Shown: positions 2,361 to 31,497 of the stretch, piece by piece
Position numbering within the stretch: position 1 is the stretch's first letter
Layout of the letters: each line of letters starts with the position of its first letter
IMG/VR virus record: IMGVR_UViG_3300030328_003146
Span: 1 to 33,404 of that record
Strand: one strand, 5' to 3'
Length of the DNA stretch: 33,404 nucleotides
DNA from: a virus
The notes under the pieces: model-generated
Databases searched by the model: none
Told to the model about the DNA's origin: nothing
The model's input: only the letters and a program-made list of their open reading frames with translations
Program-made: the position numbers and the translations under genes

Positions 2361-3923
2361 ATGGAATACAATCAACCCAGTGAGATTGTCAAAGATTTGA
2401 ACTTTGGTGACTCAGCTAAAAACAGAATATCAACTGGGGTAGAAAAACTAGCAGGCGCTGTTAAATCTACTCTAGGTGCATCAGGTAAATGTGTAATTTA
2501 CGAAGATGCTAGAGGTAAACCAGTGATCACAAAAGACGGAGTAACCGTAGCGGAATCGGTTGTCTTGTTTGATCCAGTGGAGAACATAGGAGCAACTCTT
2601 ATTAAAGAGGCTTCTAGGAATACAGTAAGGGAGGCAGGTGACGGTACTACTACAGCTATCGTACTTGCTGAATCCCTTTTAAATGAAGTTAACAAAAGTC
2701 CTGAATACACTACAAGACAAATTAAATTAGGTATAAACTCTGCTCTAAGCAAAGTGAATGAATATCTAGATAAAAATAGTGTGGACGTTTCCGGTAGAAT
2801 GTTAAGTAATGTTGCCACTATATCTTGTAATAATGACGAGAATTTAGGTGATACAATTGCTGAGGCATACAACGTTGTTGGTAAAAATGGTGTTGTATTG
2901 ATGGAAGAATCGGAAACAAACGAAACTTACGTAGAAACTGTTGATGGTGTACAGATTGATTGTGGTTTAAAATCACCTCATTTTGTTACAGATAAAGATA
3001 GAGAGACTGCAACATTAGAAAACCCGTTAGTATTAATAGTATCATCAGAAATACCAAGTATTAGAAAGATACAATCCATACTAGAACACGTTATAAAACA
3101 CAAGCGGGCTTTGTTGATAGTAGCTCCAGTAGTGCAACAAGTTCAATCTGCTTTGATGATGAATAAGGTTAAAGGTAATATTAATGTTAATATTATTGAA
3201 ACACCTGGATTTGGACCTACTAAGCAAGATGCTATTGAGGATTTAGCCATACTTACTGGTGCTAAAGTTATTAGTGAAGAACTTGGTGATGATTTAGACT
3301 TGATACAACCTGATTGTTTAGGTGAGGTATTAAAATCAGTTACAGATAATAAAAACACTGTACTTACTATAAAAGAAATTAATAGTGATATTGGTGAAAG
3401 AATATCTGAAGTTGAAAAGAAAATAGAAAAAGAAAAAAACGAATTTATAAAAAGAAAATTACAAGATAGACTTAGTATGCTATCTGGTTCTGTTGGTATT
3501 GTAAGAGTAGGCGCGGACTCAAAGGTTGAGTTAAAAGAAAAGAAAGATCGTGTTGAAGATGCAATACATGCTGTTAAAGCGGCATTAAAAGAAGGTATAG
3601 TTTCTGGTGGTGGTATATCCTTACTGAACGCATCACAAAAAACAAAGCCTTCTAACGAATGTGAAAATATATTATTAAGAGCAATACGTTCACCTTATAA
3701 CACTATACTAGAAAATGCAGGTATAGAAGACTCAGTTGAACCTTTAAAAAAGGGTTGGGGCTTTGATGTCGTTTCTGGTGAGCATGTTAATATGGTAAAA
3801 AGTGGGATCATAGATCCTGTATTAGTTACAAAGACAGCTTTAAAAAATGCAGTTAGCGTGGTATCCACCATCATATCTGCAGATTGTGTTATATCTAATA
3901 TGAGGACTAATGAAAGCAATTAA
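2361..3923 (+). CDS. groEL: Phage-encoded GroEL-type chaperonin (520 aa)
   Basis: Group I chaperonin (Cpn60), an ATP-driven folding chamber acting in the cytoplasm. Family signatures are clear: ITKDGVTV (Lys58/Asp59, equivalent to E. coli Lys51/Asp52), GDGTTTA at 93-99, RVEDAIHA with the catalytic Asp400 (E. coli Asp398) and VSGGG at 414-418. It is shorter than E. coli GroEL (548) and lacks the GGM-rich tail, ending MRTNESN. By-eye alignment of the apical domain shows changes at GroES/substrate-binding positions: E. coli Tyr199 to Leu203, Tyr203 to His207, and Leu234 and Leu259 both to Gln, while Phe204 is kept. At the ring interface Arg452 is Asn, whereas Glu461, Ser463 and Val464 match. It starts after an A/T-only leader and overlaps groES by 14 bases. 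It is likely used for folding virion proteins. Confidence 0.96.
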   Translation: MEYNQPSEIVKDLNFGDSAKNRISTGVEKLAGAVKSTLGASGKCVIYEDARGKPVITKDGVTVAESVVLFDPVENIGATLIKEASRNTVREAGDGTTTAIVLAESLLNEVNKSPEYTTRQIKLGINSALSKVNEYLDKNSVDVSGRMLSNVATISCNNDENLGDTIAEAYNVVGKNGVVLMEESETNETYVETVDGVQIDCGLKSPHFVTDKDRETATLENPLVLIVSSEIPSIRKIQSILEHVIKHKRALLIVAPVVQQVQSALMMNKVKGNINVNIIETPGFGPTKQDAIEDLAILTGAKVISEELGDDLDLIQPDCLGEVLKSVTDNKNTVLTIKEINSDIGERISEVEKKIEKEKNEFIKRKLQDRLSMLSGSVGIVRVGADSKVELKEKKDRVEDAIHAVKAALKEGIVSGGGISLLNASQKTKPSNECENILLRAIRSPYNTILENAGIEDSVEPLKKGWGFDVVSGEHVNMVKSGIIDPVLVTKTALKNAVSVVSTIISADCVISNMRTNESN

Positions 3924-4167
3924 TTACTACTTAATAGTAAGTGATATAAAAGAAGAGCAAAAAAAGATTGCTGGACTTATTTTCACAGAAAAGACAGACC
4001 TAGATAATCGTTACATTAGAGCTAAGGTTATCAGCTGCGGCAGTAAGGTCGAGGGTGTCGACAATAATGACATAGTATATTATGACAAGCATGCAGGACA
4101 TGGTATCAGCTATGAAGACACCCTTTATAAAATTATAAGAGTACAAGACGTAGTTCTTGTCGAATAA
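3910..4167 (+). CDS. groES: GroES-type co-chaperonin (85 aa)
   Basis: Cpn10-like lid of the GroEL chamber. The N-terminal strand (YYLIVSDI), a mobile-loop region at about 16-33 containing AGLIF (equivalent to the E. coli GGIVL hydrophobic tripeptide), AKVISCG, DNNDIVYYD and the closing VQDVVLVE all fit the family in order. It is 12 residues shorter than E. coli GroES (97), mainly because the roof hairpin between the AKVISCG and DIVYY segments is short. The ATG lies inside the end of groEL, so the two are translationally coupled, in the order EL-ES instead of the usual bacterial ES-EL. The hydrophobic loop edge is intact, so it should be able to dock on a chaperonin. Confidence 0.85.
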   Translation: MKAINYYLIVSDIKEEQKKIAGLIFTEKTDLDNRYIRAKVISCGSKVEGVDNNDIVYYDKHAGHGISYEDTLYKIIRVQDVVLVE

Positions 4168-6225: not shown

Positions 6226-6951
6226 ATGGCTAGAATATCAACGTACACGTTAGACGGGACTGTTTCTAATACCGATAAAGTAATTGGTACAGATTCTGAA
6301 AATACAACTACAAAAAACTTTAAAATACAAGATTTAAAAGAGTTTATATATGCTGGTATTAGTGGCAATATGACCGTAGCTTCTAACGGTACTGCGACAA
6401 CAAGTAGTTCCGCTACTTTAACTACAGCTAGAAATATTGGTGGTGTATCTTTTAATGGATCAACCAATATTACTTTACCTGGTGTAGATGCAACAGGTAA
6501 TCAAGATACAACTGGCACAGCGGCTATTGCCACAACTATAACAGTTGCTGATGAGTCTAGCGATACAACATGCTTCCCTATATTTGCTACTGCAGCAACG
6601 GGTGATTTAGCACCTAAAAGTGGTAGTAACTTAACCTTCAACTCTAGTAGCGGTGCTTTAACAGCAAGCAACTTTGTAACAACTTCAGATAAAAGATTAA
6701 AATCTGAAATACAACCCATCAAAGAAGGTTTAGAAATAATCAAACAATTTACATCTTATAATTATATTAAAGACGGTGAAAAAGAATCTGGGTTTATAGC
6801 TCAAGAAGTTCAAAAAGTTTTACCACACAATATTAAAGAAGATTATAGAGGATACTTATCTATGAGTGATAGAGGTGTTTTAGCGCATATGCATAAAGCA
6901 ATACTTGAATTAGAAGAAAAATTAGTAGCAATAGAAGAAAAACTTAAGTAA
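6226..6951 (+). CDS. Short tail fibre with S74-type self-cleaving chaperone domain (241 aa)
   Basis: Residues 1-150 form a Ser/Thr/Gly-rich fibre stem ([21 protein letters not shown]...). The C-terminal 90 residues match the intramolecular chaperone/peptidase S74 domain, which trimerises the fibre and then cuts itself off: the SDxRxK motif is present at 154-159 (SDKRLK, with the Ser-Lys catalytic dyad), followed by [22 protein letters not shown] at 189-200 and a terminal coiled-coil helix ([16 protein letters not shown]). Cleavage before Ser154 is expected from the family. It directly precedes the DUF285 fibre with one base between stop and start, suggesting coexpression as parts of one fibre apparatus. 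Confidence 0.88.
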
Positions 6952-6952
6952 T

Positions 6953-8443
6953 ATGGGTGTACCTACTAGTGGTAGTTTTAGTATGTTTGGAAACAGTGAT
7001 AACACTACAATACAAGGTGCTATAACTGAAGGCGGTGGATCTGTAGCTAGTGTTGATAATTTAAATGCTTTAATAGCCGCATCTAATGTTTCTTTATTTA
7101 ATACAACTTACTCTGGAGATTTAAGTGGTAGTTTAAGTAATGTAACTAACGCCAATCAATATAGAGGTTATCCTACAGTAACATCACCAGCCTTTGCATT
7201 TACTTACACATTTCCTGCAGGTCAGACTTATAATGCAAGCATTCTTTTATTTGGTACTTCTAGTGAATATAATGCTACTTGGACTTGGGGAGATGGTACT
7301 ACAACAAGTATAACTGATAACAGTGCACTTAGCAGAACCATAGCAGACAATAGTGGAGGTGGATCAACAAGCACATATAATGGAAATGTAGTAGGGGCAA
7401 CAACTGAAGGGTTTCCAGAATGGTATTTAAATAATTTGAATGTAACTGATATCTCGGCTTGGGGTAACTTAAAGTGGAAAAAATTAGTATTGGGAAAAGC
7501 AGATAATAATTTAAATATAAGTGCTAGTGACACACCAGATCTTTCAAGATGCACAAGTTTAGAGGGTTGTTTTTCTAGTGTAACAAATTTTAATGACAGC
7601 AATGTTACTAGTTGGGATGTTAGCAATGTACAGTTATTTACTAGTATGTTTTTTGGTGCTTTTGCTTTTAATCAAAATATAGGTGGTTGGAATACAGGAA
7701 GTGCCACTGATTTCCTACAAACGTTCATGAATGCTACATCTTTTAATCAAAGTATTAATTCTTGGGATACTGCAGACGTTACTAGTATGGTGAATATGTT
7801 TAGAGGAGCTACATCTTTTAATCAAACTTGTAATTCTTGGAACACGAGTAATGTTACAAATATGGGAGCAATGTTTAAAGGAGCTACTTCTTTTAATCAA
7901 GATCTAAATTCTTGGGATGTAAGTAGCGTTACAAGCATGAGTAGTATGTTTGATGGAGCAACTGCTTTTAATGGAAATATTACTAGTTGGAATGTAAGTG
8001 GTGTTACTAATAGTATGACTGTTATGTTTAAAAACGCACAATCTTTTAATCAAAATATTAGTTCTTGGAACGTTAGTAATGTTATTAGTATGGCTAGTAT
8101 GTTTGAAGGTGCTGAAAGTTTTAACCAAGATATTAGTGGTTGGAATACAAGTAGTGTTACAAGTATGAGGAGTATGTTTCAGGATGCAACCGCTTTTAAT
8201 CAAAACCTTGCTAGTTGGGATATAGCAGATGTAACAGATATGACAAGTATGTTTCAAGCTACTGCTTTATCTGATGCTAATTATAAAGCTACAATTATAG
8301 GTTGGGCAGCACAATCAACACAAAGTAATGTAACAGCACACTTTGGTAGTGCAAACTTAACAGACTCTGCAGGTCAAGCCGCTAGAACAACATTAGTTAG
8401 TAGAGGTTGGACAATAACAGATGGCGATGGTACACATACTTAA
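6953..8443 (+). CDS. Fibre/adhesin with nine DUF285 (BspA-like) repeats (496 aa)
   Basis: The N-terminus ([14 protein letters not shown], 1-60) looks like a phage fibre attachment segment. Residues 75-150 form a beta region with a PKD-like WTWGDGTTT motif. Residues 213-438 hold nine near-perfect 25-residue repeats of the type FNQ-x-I-x-SW-[DN]-x-S-x-VTSM-x-x-MF-x-GATS, the DUF285 leucine-rich-repeat family known from mycoplasma and flavobacterial surface proteins. The C-terminal segment ([12 protein letters not shown]... and [16 protein letters not shown]) is the ending often seen on such proteins in Flavobacteriia, but no secretion-sorting domain follows. A receptor-binding role is the natural inference. 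The repeat block suggests acquisition from a host-type gene. Confidence 0.88.
7589..8266 (+). repeat. Nine tandem 75-bp repeats encoding the DUF285 units
   Basis: Units begin at the FN pair and are 25 codons long, except the first and sixth (26) and the last (24). At DNA level they share TCTTTTAATCAA and AGTATGTTT-type segments, with third-position drift between units. They could exchange or change number by recombination. Confidence 0.85.
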
Positions 8444-8758: not shown

Positions 8759-8960
8759 AATTAGCATTGGTAAAGATTATAAAAATGAATCTATGCATTA
8801 TTCCGTAGGTCAAGAGGTCTACGGAGGGCATAAGATTTCTAATATAATTGAAGAGGATGAAGGATATGACATCTATATTCAAAAAGATAAAGATGTTATT
8901 ATTTGGAAGAACTTCAATAAAAACATGGCTATATCAGTAGAGTATAATCTAGAATATTAA
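8730..8960 (+). CDS. Small hypothetical protein (76 aa)
   Basis: The product is not recognised. It reads as a small beta-rich domain (HYSVGQEVYGGHKISNI, GYDIYIQKDKDVIIWKNF, AISVEYNLEY). A second in-frame ATG lies at 8736 (MSSKLIRK), which may be the real start; either way the gene begins inside the upstream coding sequence in another frame. Its TAA stop shares its last base with the ATG of the next gene, so translation is likely coupled. The tight packing among packaging genes argues that it is real and coexpressed. Confidence 0.68.
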   Translation: MKMSSKLIRKISIGKDYKNESMHYSVGQEVYGGHKISNIIEEDEGYDIYIQKDKDVIIWKNFNKNMAISVEYNLEY

Positions 8961-9565
8961 TGCGAAGTATATATGATTTTATTATATCACCTAAAATATC
9001 AAGATATAATAATAGTAAAAAAGTAGGGGATAAAAATCTCATACTTAACACAGAGATATACAACCATCAATATGTTAGTAGAAAAGCTATAGTTAAATCA
9101 ATACCTATAGCTGTACCTACTAAAATACAGGTTGGAGATGAAATAATAGTTCATCACAATGTGTTTAGAAGATGGCATAATGTAAAGTCTGAAGAAAAGA
9201 ATAGTAGAAGTTATATAGATGAAAACACTTATTGTGTAAAAGAAGATCAAATATTTTCTTACAAAAGAAATAATAAGTGGATAGCTACAGATGGTTTTTG
9301 TTTTGTAAAACCAATAAAATCTACAGACAAGTATTCTTCTAATCAAGAAAAAGAGTGTGTAGGTGTTTTAAAACAAAGTAACAAAGCACTTTTAGAGTTT
9401 GGTTTAAAAGAAGGTGACTTAGTAGGATTTACACCTGTTAGCACTTATGAATTTATTATTGACGGTGAAAGACTATATAGAGTTTTAACTAGTCAAATTA
9501 CAATTAAATATGAATATCAAGGAAACGAAGAAGAGTATAATCCAAGCTGGGCAAGTAGCAGTTGA
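8960..9565 (+). CDS. Probable tandem GroES-like (Cpn10) protein (201 aa)
   Basis: Two halves show the same pattern, resembling duplicated Cpn10 barrels. Half one (about 1-102) has VSRKAIVKS, the VGDEIIVHH turn at 58-66 and TYCVKEDQIFSY at 90-101. Half two (about 103-185) has GFCFVKPI, ECVGVLK, the EGDLVGFTP turn at 151-159 and LYRVLTSQITIKYEY at 162-176. The VGD/EGD turn and the closing strand are where GroES has VGD and ESDILAIV. I recall similar proteins in marine phages annotated as co-chaperonin, but cannot verify it. The canonical mobile-loop tripeptide is not evident. It ends in a Glu-rich tail whose last 56 bases also encode the next gene. Possible roles: capsid-specific co-chaperonin or a virion barrel protein. 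Confidence 0.55.
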   Translation: MRSIYDFIISPKISRYNNSKKVGDKNLILNTEIYNHQYVSRKAIVKSIPIAVPTKIQVGDEIIVHHNVFRRWHNVKSEEKNSRSYIDENTYCVKEDQIFSYKRNNKWIATDGFCFVKPIKSTDKYSSNQEKECVGVLKQSNKALLEFGLKEGDLVGFTPVSTYEFIIDGERLYRVLTSQITIKYEYQGNEEEYNPSWASSS

Positions 9566-10157: not shown

Positions 10158-12380
10158 ATGTACAAACAAACCTTATATAAGGTTATAACTCCAATTAAAT
10201 TAAATACAATAGCAAGACTTAATAAGTCTAAAAAATGGGAGTATGGTTACAATAAGGAACATGATATTATTGTAATCAGTAAAACCGGTCAAATTGGTGA
10301 TATATATGAGATACAAAATCTTAAAATAGCTTTACCAAAACAAAGTAATATTGTTAAGTTTAAAAGTAATAAGTGGGAATATACCGAATATCCCAAGGAG
10401 CTTAATAAAATTAAAACAATATTTGACTGGAAAGAATACCCTAATAGTTTTAAGGAAAGATACATAGAATATATAGAGAATGAGTTCAAAATTAGAGAGG
10501 AAGGCTTATGGTATTATAACAACAGTAATCCTACTTATATTACTGGCACTCATTACATGTACTTGCAATGGAGTAAAATTGACGTCGGCAAGCCAGATTA
10601 TCGTGAAGCCAATAGATTATTCTACATCTTTTGGGAAGCCTGTAAAGCCGATTTTCGATCTTATGGGATGTGTTACCTTAAGAACAGACGATCCGGCTTC
10701 TCATTCATGGCGTCAGGTGAAGTTGTTAACCTTGCAACAATATCCAGTGATGCGCGTTACGGGATACTGTCCAAGTCCGGTCCCGATGCTAAGAAAATGT
10801 TCACCGACAAAGTGGTGCCTATATCCGTCAACTACCCTTTCTTCTTCAAACCAATACAGGATGGTATGGACAGACCAAAAACAGAACTCGCTTTTAGAGT
10901 ACCAGCATCAAAACTCACAAGACGGAGTATCAGTAGCACCGACAGGCCAGAGGATTTACAGGGCTTGGACACCACAATCGACTGGAAAAATACAGGAGAT
11001 AACTCCTATGATGGAGAGAAAATCAAACTACTGGTACATGATGAATCCGGGAAGTGGGAAAAACCAAACAATATCCTCAACAACTGGAGAGTCACAAAAA
11101 CAACCTTAAGATTAGGTAGTAGAGTAATCGGAAAATGTATGATGGGTAGTACATCTAACTCATTAGACAAAGGTGGTGGAAATTTTAAGAAACTATACAG
11201 AGATTCCGACGTAACTAAAAGAAATAGAAATGGGCAAACAAGTTCTGGCCTTTATAGTCTTTTTATTCCTATGGAATGGAATTACGAAGGGTTTATTGAT
11301 GAGTACGGTCAGCCAGTATTTGATACTCCTGAGACAGAAGCTAAAGGAGTTTATGGAGAAATCATAGATACAGGTATATTAGAGCATTGGCAGAATGAAG
11401 TTGATGGATTAAAAAATGATCCCGACGCGCTAAATGAATTTTATAGACAATTCCCTAGAACAGAGGAACACGCATTTAGAGATGAAACTAAGAACAGTAT
11501 ATTTAACTTAACTAAAATATACGAACAAATAGATTATAACGAAGGTGTTGGTAATAGTACGTCTGTTACTACTGGAAATTTTCAGTGGATTAATGGCATA
11601 AAAGATTCTAAAGTTATTTTTTATCCAGATCCTAAAGGAAGATTCAATATTAGTTGGATACCACAAATACACTTACAAAATAAAATAATAGAAACTAATA
11701 GCGGTAAAAAACCTGGCAATGAACATATCGGTGCTTTTGGATGTGATAGTTATGATATATCTGGTACTGTTGATGGTCAAGGTTCTAAAGGTGCTTTACA
11801 CGGATTAACTAAGTTTTCTATGGAAGATGCACCATCTAATAGTTTCTTTTTAGAGTATTTAGCTAGACCTCAAACTGCTGAAATATTTTTTGAAGATGTA
11901 TTAATGGCATTAGTATTTTACGGTATGCCAATATTAGCAGAGAATAACAAACCTAGACTTTTATACTATTTAAGACGTAGAGGTTATAGAGGTTATTCTA
12001 TGAATAGACCAGATAAAGTTTGGAATAACTTATCTAACGCGGAAAAAGAAATAGGTGGTATACCTAACTCTAGTGAAGACATAAAACAGTCTCATGCTGC
12101 TGCTATTGAAATGTACATACAAAACCACGTCGGTTCAAAAGGTAATGGTAGTTATGGTAACATGTATTTTAATAAAACATTAAATGATTGGTCAAGGTTT
12201 GACATAAACAATAGAACAAAGTTTGATGCGTCAATAAGTAGTGGTTTAGCCGTTATGGCTTGCAATAGGAATTTATATGCACCAAATGTGCAAAGAGAAA
12301 AACAAAAAATAAATATTGGATTTGCTAGATATAAAAATGAAGGCATGTCATCTAAAATAATAAAAGAACAATATGGCTAA
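10158..12380 (+). CDS. terL: Terminase large subunit, ATPase-nuclease (740 aa)
   Basis: TerL powers DNA translocation into the prohead and cuts the concatemer. The N-terminal extension (about 1-130) is followed by the ATPase part: the Walker-A-like KNRRSGFS at about 174-181 and a Walker-B-like LLVHDESGKW at about 290-299 with the DE pair. An arginine-rich segment with HAFRDE at about 435 follows, and the nuclease part begins with FGCDSYDIS near 526-534, the first acidic metal-binding position. It is longer than many TerL proteins. The ATPase-coding stretch 10561-11100 is about 44% G+C by hand count, against about 27-37% just outside. It overlaps the portal gene by eight bases. The upstream gap is three bases. 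Confidence 0.88.
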   Translation: MYKQTLYKVITPIKLNTIARLNKSKKWEYGYNKEHDIIVISKTGQIGDIYEIQNLKIALPKQSNIVKFKSNKWEYTEYPKELNKIKTIFDWKEYPNSFKERYIEYIENEFKIREEGLWYYNNSNPTYITGTHYMYLQWSKIDVGKPDYREANRLFYIFWEACKADFRSYGMCYLKNRRSGFSFMASGEVVNLATISSDARYGILSKSGPDAKKMFTDKVVPISVNYPFFFKPIQDGMDRPKTELAFRVPASKLTRRSISSTDRPEDLQGLDTTIDWKNTGDNSYDGEKIKLLVHDESGKWEKPNNILNNWRVTKTTLRLGSRVIGKCMMGSTSNSLDKGGGNFKKLYRDSDVTKRNRNGQTSSGLYSLFIPMEWNYEGFIDEYGQPVFDTPETEAKGVYGEIIDTGILEHWQNEVDGLKNDPDALNEFYRQFPRTEEHAFRDETKNSIFNLTKIYEQIDYNEGVGNSTSVTTGNFQWINGIKDSKVIFYPDPKGRFNISWIPQIHLQNKIIETNSGKKPGNEHIGAFGCDSYDISGTVDGQGSKGALHGLTKFSMEDAPSNSFFLEYLARPQTAEIFFEDVLMALVFYGMPILAENNKPRLLYYLRRRGYRGYSMNRPDKVWNNLSNAEKEIGGIPNSSEDIKQSHAAAIEMYIQNHVGSKGNGSYGNMYFNKTLNDWSRFDINNRTKFDASISSGLAVMACNRNLYAPNVQREKQKINIGFARYKNEGMSSKIIKEQYG

Positions 12381-18969: not shown

Positions 18970-20406
18970 ATGGCAATTACAAGTCCAACTATTTCCGCAA
19001 AAGCCAATGTACAACAAGCTATTGGTGCGGATAATTATTTAGACATCCAAAATAACGGATGGGCACAACAGTATTTACCTGAGTTGATTGAACAAGAAGC
19101 TGAGGTATATGGTAAAAGAACTATTTCAGGTTTTTTATCTCAAGTTAGTGCTGAAGAGCCTATGTCAGCTGATCAAGTTATTTGGTCAGAGCAAGGCAGA
19201 TTACATTTATCTTATGAGTGTACAATAACAGCAGCAAATCTTAGTACAATTAAAATAGCTAAAACTATTGATGGTGTAGCTCAAACTACTGATCATGGAG
19301 TTCGAGTTGGTGATATGGTATTATTTGCTGGTGGTGGACAAACTATCACTGCTCGTGTATCTGTTGCTGCAGCTGGTAGTGAGGATGTTACTTTACAACC
19401 TTATGCAGTACAACATTTAGATGATGCTGGCTTTGCTAATGGAGATGACACATGTAAACTTTTAGTTTTTGGTTCTGAATTTGGTAAAGGAACTGAAAAT
19501 CAAACTAGATCAAATGAGCCTGTTTTTGTATCACACGTTAACAAGCCAGTTATAATTAAAGATATGTATGAGGTTTCAGGATCTGATGCAGCTCAAATTG
19601 GTTGGGTTGAAGTAAGTGGCGAAGAAGGACAAAATGGTTATATGTGGTATTTGAAAGCTGAAGGTGATACTAGAGCTAGATTTAATGACTATTTAGAAAT
19701 GACCTGTATTGAAGCTGAAAAAACTGCAGCTAACTCTGATATTGACACAGGTGGTGGAGATGCTGGAGCTGGTTTAGCCGGTACTGAAGGTTTGTTTAAA
19801 GCTATCACTACTCGTGGTCATCAGTCTTCTGGTGTTAGTGGAGTAAATGCTGCTACTGATCTAGCTGAATTTGATGCTTTACTAGCTGCTTTTGATGAAA
19901 ATGGTGCTATTGAAGAAAATATGATGTTTGTGAATAGAGCTACATCTCTTGCTATTGATGATATGCTTGCTTCAATGAACTCATATGGATCTGGAGGTAC
20001 TTCTTACGGTGTATTTAGTAACAGTGAGGAAATGGCTTTAAACTTAGGGTTTTCAGGATTTAGGAGAGGTTCTTATGACTTCTACAAGTCTGATTGGAAA
20101 TACTTAAACGATAAAGCTACTAGAGGCGGTATTAATGCTGCTGCAACTGGTGGAGAGGCTGTCAGAGGCGTTGTTATACCAGCTGGTGTATCTTCTGTTT
20201 ATGATCAGTCTTTAGGTCAAAATATTAAAAGACCATTTTTACATGTTAGATATCGAGCTTCTAATCTAGAAAGCAGAAAAAACAAAACTTGGATTACAGG
20301 TTCTGTTGGGGCTGTTACATCGGATTTAGATGCAATGACTGTCAACTTTCTTTCTGAAAGATGTATGGTTGTTCAAGGTGCTAACAATTTCTGTTTGTTA
20401 AACTAA
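18970..20406 (+). CDS. Major capsid protein (478 aa)
   Basis: The gene follows the putative scaffold and is closed by a strong terminator, as expected for a highly expressed product. The protein has an N-terminal helical arm (ANVQQAIGADNYLDIQNNGWAQQYLPELIEQEAEVYG), a beta-rich middle with few charged repeats, a helical segment (FDALLAAFDENGAIEENMMFVNR) and a C-terminal domain with SVYDQSLGQNIKRPFLHVRYRASNLESRK. Length and composition suit an HK97-fold shell protein, as does the position between portal/scaffold and connector genes. The assignment rests on context and familiarity with marine phage capsids; no catalytic motif exists to confirm it. Confidence 0.84.
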   Translation: MAITSPTISAKANVQQAIGADNYLDIQNNGWAQQYLPELIEQEAEVYGKRTISGFLSQVSAEEPMSADQVIWSEQGRLHLSYECTITAANLSTIKIAKTIDGVAQTTDHGVRVGDMVLFAGGGQTITARVSVAAAGSEDVTLQPYAVQHLDDAGFANGDDTCKLLVFGSEFGKGTENQTRSNEPVFVSHVNKPVIIKDMYEVSGSDAAQIGWVEVSGEEGQNGYMWYLKAEGDTRARFNDYLEMTCIEAEKTAANSDIDTGGGDAGAGLAGTEGLFKAITTRGHQSSGVSGVNAATDLAEFDALLAAFDENGAIEENMMFVNRATSLAIDDMLASMNSYGSGGTSYGVFSNSEEMALNLGFSGFRRGSYDFYKSDWKYLNDKATRGGINAAATGGEAVRGVVIPAGVSSVYDQSLGQNIKRPFLHVRYRASNLESRKNKTWITGSVGAVTSDLDAMTVNFLSERCMVVQGANNFCLLN

Positions 20407-23292: not shown

Positions 23293-26200
23293 ATGGCAAA
23301 TATAAAACATCACTTTCGTAGAGGTCGCATGAACAAAGATCTTGACGAAAGATTATTGCCTAATGGTGAATATAGAGATGCCCAGAATATAGAAATAGTT
23401 ACTTCTGAAGGATCTGATGTAGGTTCTATACAAAACGTATTAGGCACTGTTTTAAAAAAAGGTAGAACATACGATGAAAATACTCAAGTATTAACAGAGT
23501 GGTCTGCAGATTCTAATTTATTTGATTTAATAGATCCAACATGCATTGGTTCTTTTGTTGATACTCAAAATGATAATATATATTGGTTTATACATTATTC
23601 TTTTTTAAATACTGCAGGCGATGCAATTACTAATGGAAGTGCTGTCGTAGAATACGAAGATAGTACTGGTGTTATACAACCAATATTAGTTGATGTAAAT
23701 GATATTTTAAATTTTAGTTCTAATTATTTAATAACAGGTATAAATATCATAGATGGTTTACTTTTTTGGACAGACAACCAAACTGAGCCTAAAAGAATAA
23801 ACATAAAGAAATTTAAAGAAGGTACTACCGTAGGTTCAGATCAATTTAAGGTACAAACAAAGTATCTAGGTTCTACTGGTAGCAATTTTACAGAAAAAGA
23901 CATAACTGTAATAAAACTCTCACCAAATGTTAAGCCCGAACTAACCTTATCTGCTTCTAAAAGAACAGGTGCAGGAACAGGTAATGAGCCAATAACTATT
24001 AAATCTCATAGTATAAGTTTTAGAACAAGCAATGATGCTGATGGTGTAGCAAGACCATCTGGTACTGAGCTTTTTTTACAATTTCCAATAGCACCAAACT
24101 ATAAAGTTGGTGATATATTGAAATTATCTCTTACTGAAAAAGATTCAATAGAAGGAGATACTGAATATGAAATAAGAGCAAAAATAACAAAAGGTACAAA
24201 CTCTTTTTTAACAACATTCATAAAAATACTTACAATACCAGAAAATATTCCTTACGGAACAACAAATGATTCAGGAGCTTTTATAAGTGAATATAGTGTT
24301 GTTTTAGTTGAAGAAGATCCATTATTTGAAGATAAATTTGTAAGATTTTCTTATAGATGGAAATATATAGATGGCGAATATTCAACTTTTGCTCCATTTT
24401 CAAACGTAGCTTTTGTTCCGTCAAACTTTGAATATAAATCTTCAGATGGTTTTAATGTTGGTATGTCTAATACTGCTAGACAAATAAAAATACAAACATT
24501 GGAAACACCGCCTGTAGGTGTTATTGAAGTAGATTTACTTTATAAAGAATCAAATAATAATAACATTTATATAGTAGATAGAATAAAGACAGAAGATTTG
24601 TCTACAGAATTTCCTTATGAAATAAAAAGTGAAATAGTTGGTGATGTTGTTGAATCAAATCAAATACTTAGGCCTTGGGATAACGTTCCTTTAAAAGCTC
24701 AAGCTCAAGAGCTTAGTTCTAATAGAATACTATATGGTAATTACACTCAGGGTTATAATATAGAAAACAATAGATTACCTGACATAATAACAACACATAA
24801 TTCAACAGATATAACTACAGTTGAAGCTCCTGAAAAGTCTGTAAAATCACAAAGAACATATCAAGTTGGTGTCGTTTATCTAGACCCATACAGCAGAGAA
24901 ACACCCGTTTTTTCTAAAAAAGAAGCTGCTGTGCAAATATCTAAAGAACATGCTAATAAAGTAAACAGTTTAAGTTGTAAACTCAATAATAATGCACCTG
25001 AATTTGCAACTCATTTTAAACATTTTATTAAAGAATCATCTAGTGAATATTACAATATTGCATTAGATAGATATTATTTAGCAGAAGATGGTAATATATG
25101 GTTATCTTTTCCTTCGTCTGAAAGAAACAAAGTTACAGAAGAAGATTATTTAATTTTAAAGAAAAAACACAATGAAAGTGTTTTTGTAGAAGAAGAAGCT
25201 AAATATAAGATTTTAGATATTAAAAATGAAGTTCCAGATTTTATATCACAACAATTAATATCTAAGGCAACTGCAAACGTTCAAGCTAGATATGATTCTG
25301 GATTAGAAAGCGAACCTACAGTTGGTGCAATTAGTTTTCAATTTGAAGGTCCAACAGATGTTTTAAATCCAAGTTTTTACAATTCATTTTCTTCAGATTC
25401 AGAAATAGCAATCACAACATTACAAGGTAGTAATGAAGTTGCAACAACTCAAAGATATAAAATACAAAAAGGTGGTCCAACTGGAACACAAAATAGTTCT
25501 TTAGAAATATATGAAGTAACACTTAAATCACCCATAAAAGAAGCTGACAAAGATGTATTTGCTGTATATAACACTGATGGAACAGCATCAAGTTCTTATT
25601 TATTAAATACAGCTCAAAACGCAGTTGTTGAATTTAAAATTGAAGTATTACAAAAAGAGAAAAAAATAGATTCTCAATTTTTTGGTAGATTTTTTGTTAA
25701 AATAAATAGAGATTCTATTTTTGATTCAAGTATTATAGAGACTTTTCCTGCGGTACAAACCGAATTTGCTAGTATAAGAAGCGAACAAATATTAGAAAAT
25801 GCTTTAAGTGATCCTGAAAATGACAACAACAACTCTATTCCACCTGCAGCCGCCTTGGCAATAAGTAGTGGTGTACCAGCTATTTTAGTTTTGGGATTTG
25901 CTGTAGCATCGTGGAATTCTAAACCCAAAAAAGATAAAAATGTTGACTGGTGTTGGACAGACACTAATCCAAAAAGTACATACGATAAAGGTGAGCATCA
26001 GCATCCTAAAAGAGGTAGTAAAAATTTTGTACTTTATTTAGCTGGAGTTGATCTACCAGGTGATAAACATGATCCAGATGAGAAATTTCAAGATATTATA
26101 ACTAATCCTATGTCTAGAGATCTTAGACAAGTTGGTAACTTTATTCAATTTGAAAATGCTAAAGGATTAAAAGGTTCTATTTATAAAATAACAAAATCAG

Positions 26201-29200
26201 AAGTAACAACTGATTTTAGATCAAAGAAAAGAAGTTTAAGAAAAAGAACAGTAGGTAGAAGAAGAAATTTTAATATAGAGATTGAAAAAGTAACTCAAGA
26301 TACTAGTAGAAATAAAGGATATGATGATCCTTTTGTGTATGAAGATGCATCTGATACAAGTGATACTGGTAGAATAGCAAAAATTCATATAGTAAGAAAA
26401 CTTGTTTCAACAGATTTTCTTGATGAAAATGATATGTCATCTAATAATCCTGCTGTATTTGAAGTTGAACCTAAAGAATCTATTGATTTAGATATATATA
26501 ATGAAGTTGGTAGTGCAGTACCAATATTAAAAACTGGACTACAAGTAACTGGAACAAATATAGCAGCTAATTCTGTTATAGATTTATACGATACTATAGA
26601 AAACACAATAATATTAAACAATAATACCACTGGGTCAATACCTACAGGAACTGTACTTACTTTTACAGATCCAAAAGGTATATATAGCTTTACACTGACA
26701 ACAACTGGTACTATATCTAGTGGAACAGCTAATATAACAATAGCTGACAGTCAAGTTCATGGCCAAGATCATCAATTAGACTGGTTTAATTGTTATTCTT
26801 TTGGTCAGGGTGTTGAATCTAATAGAATTAGAGATGATTTTAATGCTGTTATAATAGACAAGGGACCAATTGTATCAACTGTGTTGAATGAAAAGTATCA
26901 ACAAGAAATAAAACTAAATACTATAATTTACTCTGGCATATTTAATGCTACGGGTGGTGTAAATAGATTAAATGAATTTATTCAAGCTGAAAAAATTACT
27001 AAAGATTTAAACCCAGAATATGGTAGTATACAAAAGCTACATACTAGGGATGCTGATGTTATAGCTTTTTGCGAGGACAAAGTAATAAAAATACTAGCTA
27101 ATAAAGATGCTTTATTTAATGCTGATGGTAATACTAATTTAACTTCCACAAATAATGTTTTAGGTCAAGCAATGCCTTACTCGGGTGAATATGGTATATC
27201 TAAAAATCCAGAGTCTTTTGTGTCGCATGCTTATAGAGTATATTTCTCAGATAAAGCCAGAGGATCTGTTTTAAGACTATCTAGAGATGGTATAACTGAT
27301 ATAGCTATAAAAGGTATGACAGATTGGTTTAATGACAATCTACCACTGTCTACGTCAATCGTAGGATCTTATAATGAAAGAAAAGGATCTTATAATATAA
27401 CATTAAATAATTATACTCTTTGCTTTGACGAAAGAGTTGATGGTTGGACAAGTTTTAAATCATTTTTACCAGAATCAGGCGTTTCGTTAAATAATACATA
27501 TTACACTTATAAAAATGGTTATTTATATGCTCATACTAACGAAAGAAGAAATTCATTTCATCAAGTTTTAGCAAAAACAGCTGCTGCTTTAACAAATGGT
27601 ACTTCTTTATCTATAGCAACTCAACCTGGTGTAGATAACATTGCTATAGGTGATTATGTGTTAGGTACTGGCGTAGCTGGTGATGTTACTGTAACAAATA
27701 TATCTGTACCAACTACTACTGTAGGTGGTGTAACAATACCTAATAGATCTATTAATACTACAGTTACGCTTTCTTCTAATCAAACTATATCAGATAGCAC
27801 AAATCTTGAGTTTATAAAAACTTCAGATACTTCCGTTACTTTATTAATAAATGATGAATCTTCAACAATTAAAGAATATAAAACTTTAAATTATGAAGGT
27901 AGTGATTCTAAATCATTTACGTATTCTGGTACTATATCTGTTGATGCTAGTGGAAGTTCATTAAGTCCAAACGTGACTATTGGAGCAGGAACAACTCTTG
28001 CTGAATTACAAAAATCTAATTATAATTCTAATCAAATAGCTCAATTAACAGAAACATCAGCAGTAGGTTGGAGTGCTGAATCTGTAACAACAAATTCTCA
28101 AAGTGGAAGTGTTAAGTTATTTAAAAACAAAGAAGGTTTATGGAGCAATATTATATTAGGTGATACTACTTCATTATCTAACATAGACACTAAAGAACTA
28201 TCAGTTCAGGGTTTAGGTTCATTTTCATCTATATCAGGTGCTGCAAGTCCTACTCAAGCAGAATTAACTATAGTATTAGCTAATTCTACAACAGATCACA
28301 ATACAGATGTTTCAGCAACTAAAATAATAACTGGTGTAGCTAATGGCGCTAATTTAAACAGTGTTTATGGTACCTTAGATCTAACAATAGCTCCAAATAC
28401 TGGTTACAATATATCAGCATCAAGCTTTGCTTTTAGCAGTGCGTCTGGAGTTAGTGGAGCAGGTGTTAGTAGTATTTCATTTACTCAAGATGGTGTTAAT
28501 GTAAAAGCTACTATAACTTTTAGTGGAGTAATGCCATCATCAGACGATGAAATGACAGTGAATATTACTGGAGCTGCGTCTGCAAACACTTATACTTTAG
28601 CTGGAACATACGATACTATAGAAGAAAATACAACAACCGCATCAAGTGATAATATTGCTTATTCTGGAACTGGCACCTACAATGCTACTGCAGCTACTGT
28701 TTTTACTAAAACATTTGTAGCAGATGATAATTATTCTTTTAGCACTAAACCAACTGCTTTTATTGAAGAAGAAGATACTAGCGCAATAAGTAGTTACACT
28801 ATAACAGATGATTGGGCAACTACTACTGCTACTGTTAATGGCGCTGTTACCAGTAGCAATGAAGTAACTTTAGATGGTGGTCATACAAGTATAGTTAATG
28901 GTATGGCTGTTGCTGGTGTAGGCTTAGGTCAAGATGCTAGAGTTCATAGTATAGGTGGTAATACTTTAATTTTAACTTCTGCTAAAACAATACCAGATGG
29001 TACAACATTAACTTTTACATCAACATCTGTAACTTTTACAGTTAAATATGTATATGGTATTAATAATCCTAAATTTGACAAACTAATTTTTACGGCTAAA
29101 TCAACTGAAATATTTTCTCCAAATACAGCAGAGCTAACCGCTTTTGACGGTGGTAATAAGACAATAATAGCTGCGGGTGAAACAAAAACAATGGTAATAC

Positions 29201-31497
29201 AAGGTTCAACAGGTTATGCTGATGAAACAAATCCAACTTTTACCTTTTCTAATGAAGCTGAGGGATCTGGAACAATAACATTTAGTCAAAGTTCTACTTC
29301 AGCAGCAACATTAAGTTTTACAACGCTTGTTGGATCACCTCAAGATGATATGATTGTTTATTCTGGTAATAATCTACCAGGACTTGATAATGGTTCAGGT
29401 GGTACTGTTGCTGGTTCAACAAAAATAAGTACCATTAGTGTTAATAAGTTTACAGGAGTTAGAACTTTAAATTTGGTTTTTACTGGAAATTCAGATGGGT
29501 CTTTAAGTGCTCCTACTGGAACAGTAAAATTTAGAAATTTTTATAATAGTGCTACAGGATTATTTCAATCAGATTCTTATACTTTAACTTTACCAGACAC
29601 AGGTAGATTATCTATATCAAAAGAATATGGTGAAATTAGTGTATCTACATATTACAGATATTTTATTAGAGCCGTAGCGCCAGCAGATTTATCTTCTAGT
29701 TTTTCTGGAAATGCTACATTAGATTCTAGTAATGATTTTGCTTCATGCGAAGTTAATCAATACGCAGATCCATTAATATATATAAATGCACATCCTGATG
29801 AAGCTTTTACAGCAAAAGTTAACGGGGCTGTTAGCAGTAGCTCTACATTAAATATTGATGAAGTTGGTGGCGATATAAAAATTGGAGATATAATAACAGG
29901 AACAGGAATTTCTGGAACTGTAACTGTAGCATCAATTACTTCTTTAACGCGTTTAGAAATGTCTAGTAATCAAAGTTTAAGTGATAACGTATTATTAACA
30001 TTTACAAGACCAATAATAACAGATAGTGATGGGGCTCAAATAAACATAAGAAACTTAGATAGCACCGTTACTGTAGGTACTGCTACAGCTAAGGTTAACG
30101 TTGGTGGAGGAACCAGCGCATCTACAGCAGTAGTTGTTGATAATAATAGTGGAACTATACAGGCTGGATTTTTTGTAACGGGAAGTGGAATTTCTGGAAC
30201 TGTCACGGTTGAATCTTTATCTGACCAACAAAATTTGGTTTTATCTTCTAATCAAACGATAGCAGATAATGTAGATTTAACATTTAGTGGAGCTTCTGCA
30301 AATAGCAAAACTATAATACTTCAAGCCGCTAATGCAAACATAAAAACTGGTATGTTAATCAAAGGTACTAACATGCCTGTAGATGGCGATGGTGATCCAA
30401 TAACTAGAGTTGTAAAACCACCTAAAACCGGTACAACTATGACTATAGACCAATTCCCTACTACAGCTCCTACTGGAGAACTTAAATTTTTAGATAGTGG
30501 TAAATACTATGCTTATGGAGATCCAGACGCTGATTCTAACTTTTCTCAAATTCCATTTAAAGTTGTTGCATCTGTAGGTGGTTCAACAACATTAACAAAA
30601 CAAAGAGATATAATTATAGAGGATGATTTTCAATATGTTGAGGCAAAAATTCTTGCTAATACAGTAATAGCTGATACTTCTGCAACCCCTAACGCAGTAG
30701 GTTTATCTGGTACTGTTGCACCAGATTCCATAGGCGTAGGTAGCATTGTTACTTCAGATAGAATAACAGAAAATTATCCAAATAAAATAATAACAGTTAC
30801 TCAAGCACCAGTACCTGGAGTATATTCTGCTGCAGGAAATATTTATGTTCTTATTGCAGAAGATGGTGTTGCTGTTTCTGATGCTACAGATTATGTTACA
30901 TCTGGTGACGAACTTACGTTTTCATCTCCATATGGTTGGGATATTGCTATAAGTAATTTAGAAGATGCTATTACTGGTAGTAGTAAAATATATACTTTAA
31001 CTGGTTTGTTGTCTGTTTCTAGATACGGGTATCAAAAATTACCAATAACGTTAGATTTAAATAATATATTATCACAATCTAGCGGATCGGGTGGAACAAC
31101 AGCAACATATGTATTTATACAAAAAACATTCTCAACAGATACTCATATTTCTGGTTTAGTAATGTATCCTAAGTCAGTAGCCGTTGGTACAGGTACCTCA
31201 ACAAACATAGTGTTTACAGGTACAGTCACTGGTAATTGGTATGGCAATACAATGAGTGGTGTTAGATTGTATTTAGGACCTGCTACAGCAGGGTTTAAAG
31301 ATTCTTCAGGCGGTGTTTTAACAACTGGTACAAGTGGTGATGTTTCTGTAAGTTTAACTTCAACATTAACTACTGCAAACTCTAGTCCTACTGTAACGCA
31401 AGCAACTTTTACATTTACGTTAAGATTAGCGGCTGTAGCGGCGACAGGACAAACATTAATAGTAGAACCAAGAATATCTTTACCAATAGAACCTTAA
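23293..31497 (+). CDS. Giant tail nozzle/stabilisation-type protein with repeated beta modules (2734 aa)
   Basis: The N-terminus (NIKHHFRRGRMNKDLDERL, then GEYRDAQNIEIVTSEGSDVGSIQNVLG) and a domain at about 1190-1360 (KLHTRDADVIAFCEDKVIK, ANKDALFNADG, GQAMPYSGEYGISKNPESF, RVYFSDKARGSVLRLSRDG) are the hallmark segments of large tail nozzle or muzzle-type proteins in Bacteroidetes and marine podovirus-like phages. An unusual hydrophobic stretch lies at 850-874 (PPAAALAISSGVPAILVLG and FAVASW), followed by a basic patch. From about 1080 to 2550 a module with the pattern GxxVTGTGIxG-TVTxI-LSSNQTIxDNTxLTF recurs six or seven times, mixed with Ig-like beta regions. The extra length probably forms a long adhesin-like or receptor-binding extension. 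It is the largest gene here, and no stop or frameshift interrupts it. Confidence 0.8.
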   Translation: MANIKHHFRRGRMNKDLDERLLPNGEYRDAQNIEIVTSEGSDVGSIQNVLGTVLKKGRTYDENTQVLTEWSADSNLFDLIDPTCIGSFVDTQNDNIYWFIHYSFLNTAGDAITNGSAVVEYEDSTGVIQPILVDVNDILNFSSNYLITGINIIDGLLFWTDNQTEPKRINIKKFKEGTTVGSDQFKVQTKYLGSTGSNFTEKDITVIKLSPNVKPELTLSASKRTGAGTGNEPITIKSHSISFRTSNDADGVARPSGTELFLQFPIAPNYKVGDILKLSLTEKDSIEGDTEYEIRAKITKGTNSFLTTFIKILTIPENIPYGTTNDSGAFISEYSVVLVEEDPLFEDKFVRFSYRWKYIDGEYSTFAPFSNVAFVPSNFEYKSSDGFNVGMSNTARQIKIQTLETPPVGVIEVDLLYKESNNNNIYIVDRIKTEDLSTEFPYEIKSEIVGDVVESNQILRPWDNVPLKAQAQELSSNRILYGNYTQGYNIENNRLPDIITTHNSTDITTVEAPEKSVKSQRTYQVGVVYLDPYSRETPVFSKKEAAVQISKEHANKVNSLSCKLNNNAPEFATHFKHFIKESSSEYYNIALDRYYLAEDGNIWLSFPSSERNKVTEEDYLILKKKHNESVFVEEEAKYKILDIKNEVPDFISQQLISKATANVQARYDSGLESEPTVGAISFQFEGPTDVLNPSFYNSFSSDSEIAITTLQGSNEVATTQRYKIQKGGPTGTQNSSLEIYEVTLKSPIKEADKDVFAVYNTDGTASSSYLLNTAQNAVVEFKIEVLQKEKKIDSQFFGRFFVKINRDSIFDSSIIETFPAVQTEFASIRSEQILENALSDPENDNNNSIPPAAALAISSGVPAILVLGFAVASWNSKPKKDKNVDWCWTDTNPKSTYDKGEHQHPKRGSKNFVLYLAGVDLPGDKHDPDEKFQDIITNPMSRDLRQVGNFIQFENAKGLKGSIYKITKSEVTTDFRSKKRSLRKRTVGRRRNFNIEIEKVTQDTSRNKGYDDPFVYEDASDTSDTGRIAKIHIVRKLVSTDFLDENDMSSNNPAVFEVEPKESIDLDIYNEVGSAVPILKTGLQVTGTNIAANSVIDLYDTIENTIILNNNTTGSIPTGTVLTFTDPKGIYSFTLTTTGTISSGTANITIADSQVHGQDHQLDWFNCYSFGQGVESNRIRDDFNAVIIDKGPIVSTVLNEKYQQEIKLNTIIYSGIFNATGGVNRLNEFIQAEKITKDLNPEYGSIQKLHTRDADVIAFCEDKVIKILANKDALFNADGNTNLTSTNNVLGQAMPYSGEYGISKNPESFVSHAYRVYFSDKARGSVLRLSRDGITDIAIKGMTDWFNDNLPLSTSIVGSYNERKGSYNITLNNYTLCFDERVDGWTSFKSFLPESGVSLNNTYYTYKNGYLYAHTNERRNSFHQVLAKTAAALTNGTSLSIATQPGVDNIAIGDYVLGTGVAGDVTVTNISVPTTTVGGVTIPNRSINTTVTLSSNQTISDSTNLEFIKTSDTSVTLLINDESSTIKEYKTLNYEGSDSKSFTYSGTISVDASGSSLSPNVTIGAGTTLAELQKSNYNSNQIAQLTETSAVGWSAESVTTNSQSGSVKLFKNKEGLWSNIILGDTTSLSNIDTKELSVQGLGSFSSISGAASPTQAELTIVLANSTTDHNTDVSATKIITGVANGANLNSVYGTLDLTIAPNTGYNISASSFAFSSASGVSGAGVSSISFTQDGVNVKATITFSGVMPSSDDEMTVNITGAASANTYTLAGTYDTIEENTTTASSDNIAYSGTGTYNATAATVFTKTFVADDNYSFSTKPTAFIEEEDTSAISSYTITDDWATTTATVNGAVTSSNEVTLDGGHTSIVNGMAVAGVGLGQDARVHSIGGNTLILTSAKTIPDGTTLTFTSTSVTFTVKYVYGINNPKFDKLIFTAKSTEIFSPNTAELTAFDGGNKTIIAAGETKTMVIQGSTGYADETNPTFTFSNEAEGSGTITFSQSSTSAATLSFTTLVGSPQDDMIVYSGNNLPGLDNGSGGTVAGSTKISTISVNKFTGVRTLNLVFTGNSDGSLSAPTGTVKFRNFYNSATGLFQSDSYTLTLPDTGRLSISKEYGEISVSTYYRYFIRAVAPADLSSSFSGNATLDSSNDFASCEVNQYADPLIYINAHPDEAFTAKVNGAVSSSSTLNIDEVGGDIKIGDIITGTGISGTVTVASITSLTRLEMSSNQSLSDNVLLTFTRPIITDSDGAQINIRNLDSTVTVGTATAKVNVGGGTSASTAVVVDNNSGTIQAGFFVTGSGISGTVTVESLSDQQNLVLSSNQTIADNVDLTFSGASANSKTIILQAANANIKTGMLIKGTNMPVDGDGDPITRVVKPPKTGTTMTIDQFPTTAPTGELKFLDSGKYYAYGDPDADSNFSQIPFKVVASVGGSTTLTKQRDIIIEDDFQYVEAKILANTVIADTSATPNAVGLSGTVAPDSIGVGSIVTSDRITENYPNKIITVTQAPVPGVYSAAGNIYVLIAEDGVAVSDATDYVTSGDELTFSSPYGWDIAISNLEDAITGSSKIYTLTGLLSVSRYGYQKLPITLDLNNILSQSSGSGGTTATYVFIQKTFSTDTHISGLVMYPKSVAVGTGTSTNIVFTGTVTGNWYGNTMSGVRLYLGPATAGFKDSSGGVLTTGTSGDVSVSLTSTLTTANSSPTVTQATFTFTLRLAAVAATGQTLIVEPRISLPIEP
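26530..30930 (+). repeat. Dispersed VTGTGI / SSNQTI beta modules in the giant protein
   Basis: Recognisable units lie near 26530-26675, 27598-27813, 28828-29020, 29811-30012, 30082-30291, 30301-30492 and 30640-30930. The two central ones share DNA such as AATTTCTGGAACTGT. Each has a GD/GM-x-V-x-GTGI turn, a TVT strand and a closing LTF strand. Confidence 0.72.

What the first reader, a model, noticed from the sequence alone, without database searches (positions are those of the whole stretch)
2361..4167. Phage groEL-groES pair in reversed order with a 14-base overlap
Bacterial operons run groES then groEL; here groEL comes first and groES starts inside its end. GroEL lacks the GGM tail and GroES has a shortened roof. 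A complete two-component chaperonin in a phage is uncommon, and the arrangement argues for long independent evolution rather than recent capture of a host operon.
Basis: partly seen in the sequence, partly recalled or inferred. Interest (0 to 1): 0.7.

Follow-up and report, generated by a model that had tools for sequence, protein, structure and literature searches.

The report
Phage chaperonin, reversed genes, two lids
A marine bacterial virus carries its own protein-folding barrel and lid with the two genes in the opposite order from bacteria; this is an old, known virus lineage rather than a recently stolen host operon, and the same viruses also carry a second, double-sized lid-like gene for which I found no description.

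Summary
groEL (2361-3923) is followed by groES (3910-4167) with a 14-base overlap. GroEL has no GGM tail, and GroES lacks most of the roof hairpin. The order is fixed in a large virus lineage: every locus of the window's clade holding both genes reads EL then ES, overlapping by 14, 17 or 1 base. The same order occurs in Flavobacterium elemo phages, phage ctfjg026 and Maribacter phage Panino. In maximum-likelihood trees these GroELs form one clade (88/88; 100/99 without long branches) apart from every sampled bacterial GroEL. An AU test rejects grouping the window's clade with Bacteroidales GroEL (p 0.002). So long independent evolution is supported, but not new: Marine et al. 2017 linked virioplankton groEL/groES order to GroEL phylogeny. 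The less expected result is a second co-chaperonin-like gene at 8960-9565, near the terminase gene. It is a double-domain protein whose predicted fold best matches chloroplast Cpn20 (Z 10.2). It occurs in 28 of 28 reversed-order records tested and in phi38:1, and in none of the 17 other chaperonin-phage records tested. Most likely this is a coupled, phage-own chaperonin for virion proteins. How the second lid works is untested.

The parts
2361..3923 (+). groEL, group I chaperonin, 520 aa, no GGM tail
   Evidence: Pfam Cpn60_TCP1 E 1.7e-53; PHROG 5725 E 2.5e-137; ATPase residues D52, D87, D398, D495 and GDGTTT kept
3910..4167 (+). groES, single-domain co-chaperonin, 85 aa, roof hairpin mostly absent, mobile loop with AGLIF
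   Evidence: Pfam Cpn10 above cut-off; AlphaFold2 model pLDDT 87.1 with low-confidence residues at the mobile loop; best PDB match Cpn10 of Thermus Z 11.5
3910..3923 (+). 14-base overlap of groEL 3' end and groES start
   Evidence: kept as 14, 17 or 1 nt in 143 of 143 lineage loci
8960..9565 (+). second co-chaperonin-like gene, 201 aa, double Cpn10-like fold resembling chloroplast Cpn20
   Evidence: PHROG 13932 'co-chaperonin GroES' E 2.4e-19 over the full length; AlphaFold2 pLDDT 86.8; best PDB match 7ekq_R Cpn20, Z 10.2, 154 residues aligned over 1-185; C half matches bacterial GroES profile, hhalign 95.8%
10158..12380 (+). terminase large subunit (context: packaging module beside the second co-chaperonin)
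   Evidence: PHROG 6681 E 2e-171; nearest named relatives ctfjg026 62.7% and elemo 45.1% identity
12373..14790 (+). portal protein (context)
   Evidence: PHROG 6547 E 1.7e-149
18970..20406 (+). virion structural protein, 478 aa, a candidate folding substrate
   Evidence: PHROG 13704 E 4e-103, head and packaging; the role as substrate is inference

Best explanation
The pair is a phage-own group I chaperonin system of a Bacteroidota-infecting podovirus lineage. It descends from one old acquisition, and the gene order was reversed once inside the lineage. groEL is translated first; groES, whose start lies inside the end of groEL, is most likely translated by ribosomes that finish groEL and re-initiate (inferred). 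GroEL hydrolyses ATP, and the phage GroES caps it through a conserved mobile loop (Gly-Leu-hydrophobic-hydrophobic in place of GGIVL) (inferred from kept residues). With no GGM tail and an open, roofless lid, the cage probably suits large virion proteins, as T4 gp31 does for gp23 (inferred). A second, Cpn20-like double-domain co-chaperonin encoded near the terminase gene probably works with the same GroEL, as an alternative or mixed lid (inferred, less certain).
For: Shown: both genes match their families above curated cut-offs. Catalytic residues D52, D87, D398, D495 are kept. The GroES mobile-loop motif is kept in all 52 representatives and is the low-confidence (flexible) part of the model. 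All EL-to-ES phages form one clade, 88/88 and 100/99. With phi38:1 the podovirus chaperonins form one clade (99/98), with the reversed order nested inside (95/86). Overlap is conserved. By simple inspection nearly all other window genes have A/T-rich leaders without a Shine-Dalgarno, which favours coupling for groES. The pair lies upstream of, and on the same strand as, fibre, terminase, portal and head genes. The second co-chaperonin co-occurs in 28 of 28 reversed-order records. T4 gp31, which also lacks the roof loops, folds the capsid protein gp23 (PMC6318259).
Against: No expression, binding or folding data exist for any member I could read. Some apical residues that bind GroES in E. coli GroEL are changed (203 H, 234 Q, 259 Q by alignment, which is uncertain there), and the R197-E386 salt bridge and the inter-ring residues 452-467 are not kept. 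The GroES match to Pfam is modest (28.1 bits). Known giant-phage chaperonins (EL, OBP, AR9) work without a co-chaperonin (PMC9598537), so GroES dependence cannot be assumed. No RNA structure supports coupling: the overlap region folds no better than shuffles (z 0.39).
Confidence: 0.72

Rival explanations
1. Recent capture of a host groESL operon followed by local shuffling of the two genes.
For: Several phage GroELs do nest in host clades: Bacteroides phage DAC16 among Bacteroidales, Vibrio phage Va1 among gammaproteobacteria.
Against: The window GroEL is at most about 42% identical to any named record outside its clade; its clade lies apart from all sampled bacteria; holding the window's clade with Bacteroidales GroEL is rejected, AU p 0.002.
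Confidence: 0.04
2. The pair is a degenerate or moonlighting chaperonin: GroEL is retained as a holdase or decoy and GroES no longer caps it.
For: Loss of the R197-E386 salt bridge, changed inter-ring region and changed apical residues; phage EL chaperonin did not interact with E. coli GroES (PMC7185714).
Against: Catalytic residues and the GroES mobile loop are strongly conserved across divergent viruses, and the two genes stay linked and overlapping.
Confidence: 0.12
3. The second co-chaperonin-like protein (8960-9565) is a virion or packaging component built on a GroES-like fold, not a chaperonin lid.
For: It sits directly before, or one or two small genes before, the terminase large subunit in window, ctfjg026, elemo and phi38:1, where small terminases often lie; its C domain has lost the GGIVL-type loop; it has strongly conserved HHN and FRRW motifs not seen in the single-domain co-chaperonins aligned here.
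Against: C half is a recognisable GroES homologue; the whole model matches Cpn20 best; the N domain keeps a hydrophobic loop tripeptide (LIL, LII or LIV) in 38 of 38 representatives; 9 of 13 large records found through this gene also carry Cpn60, and the other four may be partial contigs.
Confidence: 0.3

Closest known systems
Virioplankton GroEL/GroES of Marine et al. 2017 (ISME J 11:2479; abstract from memory, the gene-order statement repeated in PMC9611531)
   Same: Divergent viral group I chaperonins in marine viruses, gene order tied to GroEL phylogeny
   Different: Full paper not held here, so whether this exact lineage and the double-domain protein were described could not be checked
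Flavobacterium phage elemo (Elemovirus) groEL-groES pair
   Same: groEL then groES with a 1-nt overlap; related terminase; second co-chaperonin before terminase
   Different: GroEL only 36% identical; the pair is on the strand opposite the terminase
Cellulophaga phage phi38:1 (Pervagoviridae) Cpn10, GroEL and gp089
   Same: Same podovirus chaperonin clade (99/98); also has the double-domain protein
   Different: Canonical groES-x-groEL order
Phage T4 gp31
   Same: Phage co-chaperonin without the GroES roof loops; used for the capsid protein (PMC6318259)
   Different: T4 uses host GroEL; gp31 has a longer mobile loop; only 9% identity in structural alignment
Chloroplast Cpn20 (tandem Cpn10)
   Same: Two Cpn10-like domains head to tail; best fold match to 8960-9565 (Z 10.2)
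   Different: 12% identity; C domain lacks the GroEL-binding loop; phage, not plastid

Membership tests
Group I chaperonin (GroEL/Cpn60) | Cpn60_TCP1 domain above the curated cut-off over the full length | tested here: met
   182.5 bits vs 34.3, profile 1-488 of 490
Group I chaperonin (GroEL/Cpn60) | ATPase residues (D52, D87 in GDGTTT, D398, D495) | tested here: met
   all kept by alignment
Group I chaperonin (GroEL/Cpn60) | Double heptameric ring with GroES-dependent folding cycle | not testable with these tools
   inter-ring residues 452-467 are not conserved, so ring state is open
Bacterial groESL operon | groES upstream of groEL and GroEL inside a bacterial clade | tested here: not met
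   order EL-ES; phage-only clade
GroES/Cpn10 co-chaperonin | Cpn10 domain and fold | tested here: met
   28.1 bits vs 21.1; model vs Thermus Cpn10 Z 11.5, rmsd 1.6, 75 aligned
GroES/Cpn10 co-chaperonin | Mobile loop with hydrophobic GroEL-binding tripeptide | tested here: met
   G-L-I-F at residues 22-25; motif in 52 of 52 representatives
GroES/Cpn10 co-chaperonin | Heptamer that caps GroEL | not testable with these tools
   monomer model only
Cpn20-type tandem co-chaperonin (8960-9565) | Two Cpn10-like domains in tandem, by fold | tested here: met
   7ekq_R (Cpn20 co-chaperonin subunit) aligned over residues 1-185, Z 10.2
Cpn20-type tandem co-chaperonin (8960-9565) | Both halves homologous to Cpn10 by sequence | tested here: inconclusive
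   C half vs bacterial GroES hhalign 95.8%; N half only 6.6%
Cpn20-type tandem co-chaperonin (8960-9565) | Functional interaction with a Cpn60 | not testable with these tools
   no complex prediction or assay available

The most novel reading that the evidence does not exclude
The phage builds a mixed lid of seven Cpn10-like domains from its single-domain GroES and its Cpn20-like double-domain protein (for example one single plus three doubles), as chloroplasts are thought to do with Cpn10 and Cpn20. That would be a viral counterpart of the plastid hetero-oligomeric co-chaperonin, which one subunit could tune for virion substrates.
Probability: 0.17. Interest if true: 0.75.

Novelty: new variant of a known kind. 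Interest (0 to 1): 0.45.

Why it matters
It shows what looks like one reversal of a gene order that is nearly invariant in bacteria, kept over a large virus radiation, and gives an example of a chaperonin that has evolved for a long time inside viruses. The paired single- and double-domain co-chaperonins give a compact system in which to test why a chaperonin would need two kinds of lid, a question otherwise studied in plastids, and cultured relatives (elemo phages, phi38:1, Panino) make it testable.

Tried and rejected
Recent host capture: rejected by the trees and the AU test. RNA structure at the overlap: no better than shuffles. Promoter or terminator between the genes: promoter-like hits at or below chance, and no + strand terminator. 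Shine-Dalgarno for groES: the purine-rich stretch upstream (ATGAG) encodes conserved GroEL residues, so it cannot be told apart from protein conservation; simple inspection shows most other genes lack one. The one genome contigs relative at 68% identity (L157, in an alphaproteobacterial MAG) is a short contig that carries the viral-type reversed pair, and that MAG has no other Cpn60: treated as viral contamination. Panino GroEL query found no IMG/VR relative. Profile comparison of the whole double-domain protein with the single-domain GroES family was weak (8%); splitting the halves showed the C half matches bacterial GroES. Marine et al. 2017 full text could not be read; Nilsson et al. 2020 does not mention chaperonins.

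Full report
Observation. groEL lies at 2361-3923 and groES at 3910-4167, both on the + strand, sharing 14 bases. Both pass curated family cut-offs. The GroEL C-terminus ends NMRTNESN; the GGM repeat tail of bacterial GroEL is absent. GroES is 85 aa, and the alignment places the missing residues at the roof hairpin. Bacteroidales GroES already has a reduced roof, so the phage shortening is partly a further step of a host trend.

Conservation of the arrangement. Two viral-contig scans gave 151 loci of the same lineage. Of these, 148 held both genes, and all 148 read groEL then groES, with overlaps of 14, 17 or 1 nt (ORF-level recount 143 of 143; some contigs were fetched by both scans). Scans with other phage GroELs gave 13 elemo-like and 78 ctfjg026-like loci with groEL before groES, although in the ctfjg026-like group the two genes are often separated by other sequence. 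A further 76 immuto-like loci have groES before groEL. Among annotated phages the reversed order is seen in elemo, ctfjg026 and Panino, whose groES is annotated hypothetical. The bacterial order is seen in immuto, DAC16 and, with one gene between, phi38:1. A published survey found groES upstream of groEL in all single-copy bacterial operons (PMC5406781).

Phylogeny. A 47-row GroEL tree places all reversed-order phages on one side of a branch (88/88). With six long-branch rows removed, support rises to 100/99. Bacteria of five phyla lie outside. DAC16 and a 735-kb phage nest among Bacteroidales and Va1 among gammaproteobacteria, so the method does detect host capture where it happened. Holding the window's clade together with Bacteroidales bacteria is rejected (AU p 0.00195). 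Adding phi38:1 makes all podovirus chaperonins one clade (99/98), with reversed order nested inside (95/86), which fits one acquisition in the usual order and one later reversal. Bacterial sampling was limited (Pseudomonadota, Bacteroidales, Gemmatimonadota, Chlorobi, Bacillota; no marine Flavobacteriia), so the donor group is not resolved.

Function from sequence. The ATPase residues are kept. The R197-E386 salt bridge is lost in the window clade, and the inter-ring region around 452-467 is not conserved, so ring number and allostery may differ from E. coli (inference). GroES keeps a GroEL-binding loop motif in 52 of 52 representatives, and that loop is the only low-confidence part of an otherwise confident model. 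T4 gp31 likewise lacks the roof loops, which is thought to allow its large capsid substrate (PMC6318259). Position upstream of fibre, terminase, portal and head genes on the same strand points to virion morphogenesis, but the substrate is not known. By inspection, leaders of most window genes are A/T-rich without Shine-Dalgarno, and the nearest named phages by terminase infect Flavobacteriia; a Bacteroidota host is therefore likely. In such a setting, re-initiation from the groEL stop is the simplest way to translate groES.

A second co-chaperonin-like gene. The 201-aa protein at 8960-9565 matches PHROG 13932 'co-chaperonin GroES' over its length. It is conserved through the lineage. It occurs in elemo, ctfjg026, Panino and phi38:1 and in 28 of 28 records of the window, elemo and ctfjg026 groups, but in none of nine immuto-type and six other chaperonin phages, nor in immuto, DAC16 and phi14:2 (the immuto genome is counted in both calls). 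Its AlphaFold2 model (pLDDT 86.8) best matches chain R of 7ekq, named Cpn20 co-chaperonin subunit in the PDB, with both domains aligned (Z 10.2, rmsd 3.6, 154 residues). The C half is a GroES homologue by profile (95.8%) that lacks the loop tripeptide; the N half is not recognisable by sequence but keeps a hydrophobic loop in 38 of 38 representatives and resembles T4 gp31 in fold (Z 6.5, a weak value). In elemo and phi38:1 it is annotated as a GroES and directly precedes the terminase gene; in ctfjg026 it is annotated hypothetical one gene upstream. I found no paper that describes it as a double-domain co-chaperonin in the held library, but the library is partial.

Known or new. Viral GroELs in marine Bacteroidetes phages related to phi38:1 were reported by Nishimura et al. 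2017 (PMC5332604). The link between gene order and GroEL phylogeny was reported by Marine et al. 2017, as restated in PMC9611531. The finding as given is therefore a well-supported example of a known kind. The added points here are the nested single reversal, the conserved short overlap, and the co-occurring Cpn20-like protein.

Noticed in passing
window 8960-9565: Second, double-domain GroES-like gene near the terminase gene, Cpn20-like by predicted fold, present in every reversed-order phage record tested.
   Followed up: yes
window 6953-8443: 496-aa protein made largely of DUF285 repeats (Pfam E 1.8e-87), a family named from Mycoplasma; an elemo phage carries a shorter DUF285 gene upstream of its terminase region.
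   Followed up: no
window 6226-6951: Short protein with a C-terminal endosialidase chaperone (Peptidase_S74) domain, probably a self-cleaving fibre.
   Followed up: no
window 23293-31497: Single ORF of 2734 aa with no Pfam match, between head genes and a tail fibre gene.
   Followed up: no
window, most genes: Almost all start codons are preceded by A/T-rich stretches without a Shine-Dalgarno, as in Bacteroidota.
   Followed up: partly
L157 (DQLC01000067.1): An alphaproteobacterial MAG contains a contig with the reversed viral groEL-groES pair at 68% identity and no other Cpn60 in the MAG; likely a misbinned viral contig.
   Followed up: partly
L160 3724-3990 (Maribacter phage Panino PANI_CDS0109): The phage groES is annotated as hypothetical; it lies after groEL with one small ORF between.
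   Followed up: partly
L172, L173, L174 (phage collection records): Records in the phage collection (Salmonella contigs, Enterococcus phage Efs 1-1-1, Acinetobacter phage MD-2021a) hold ordinary bacterial groESL operons, so counts of phage GroEL in that collection are inflated.
   Followed up: no
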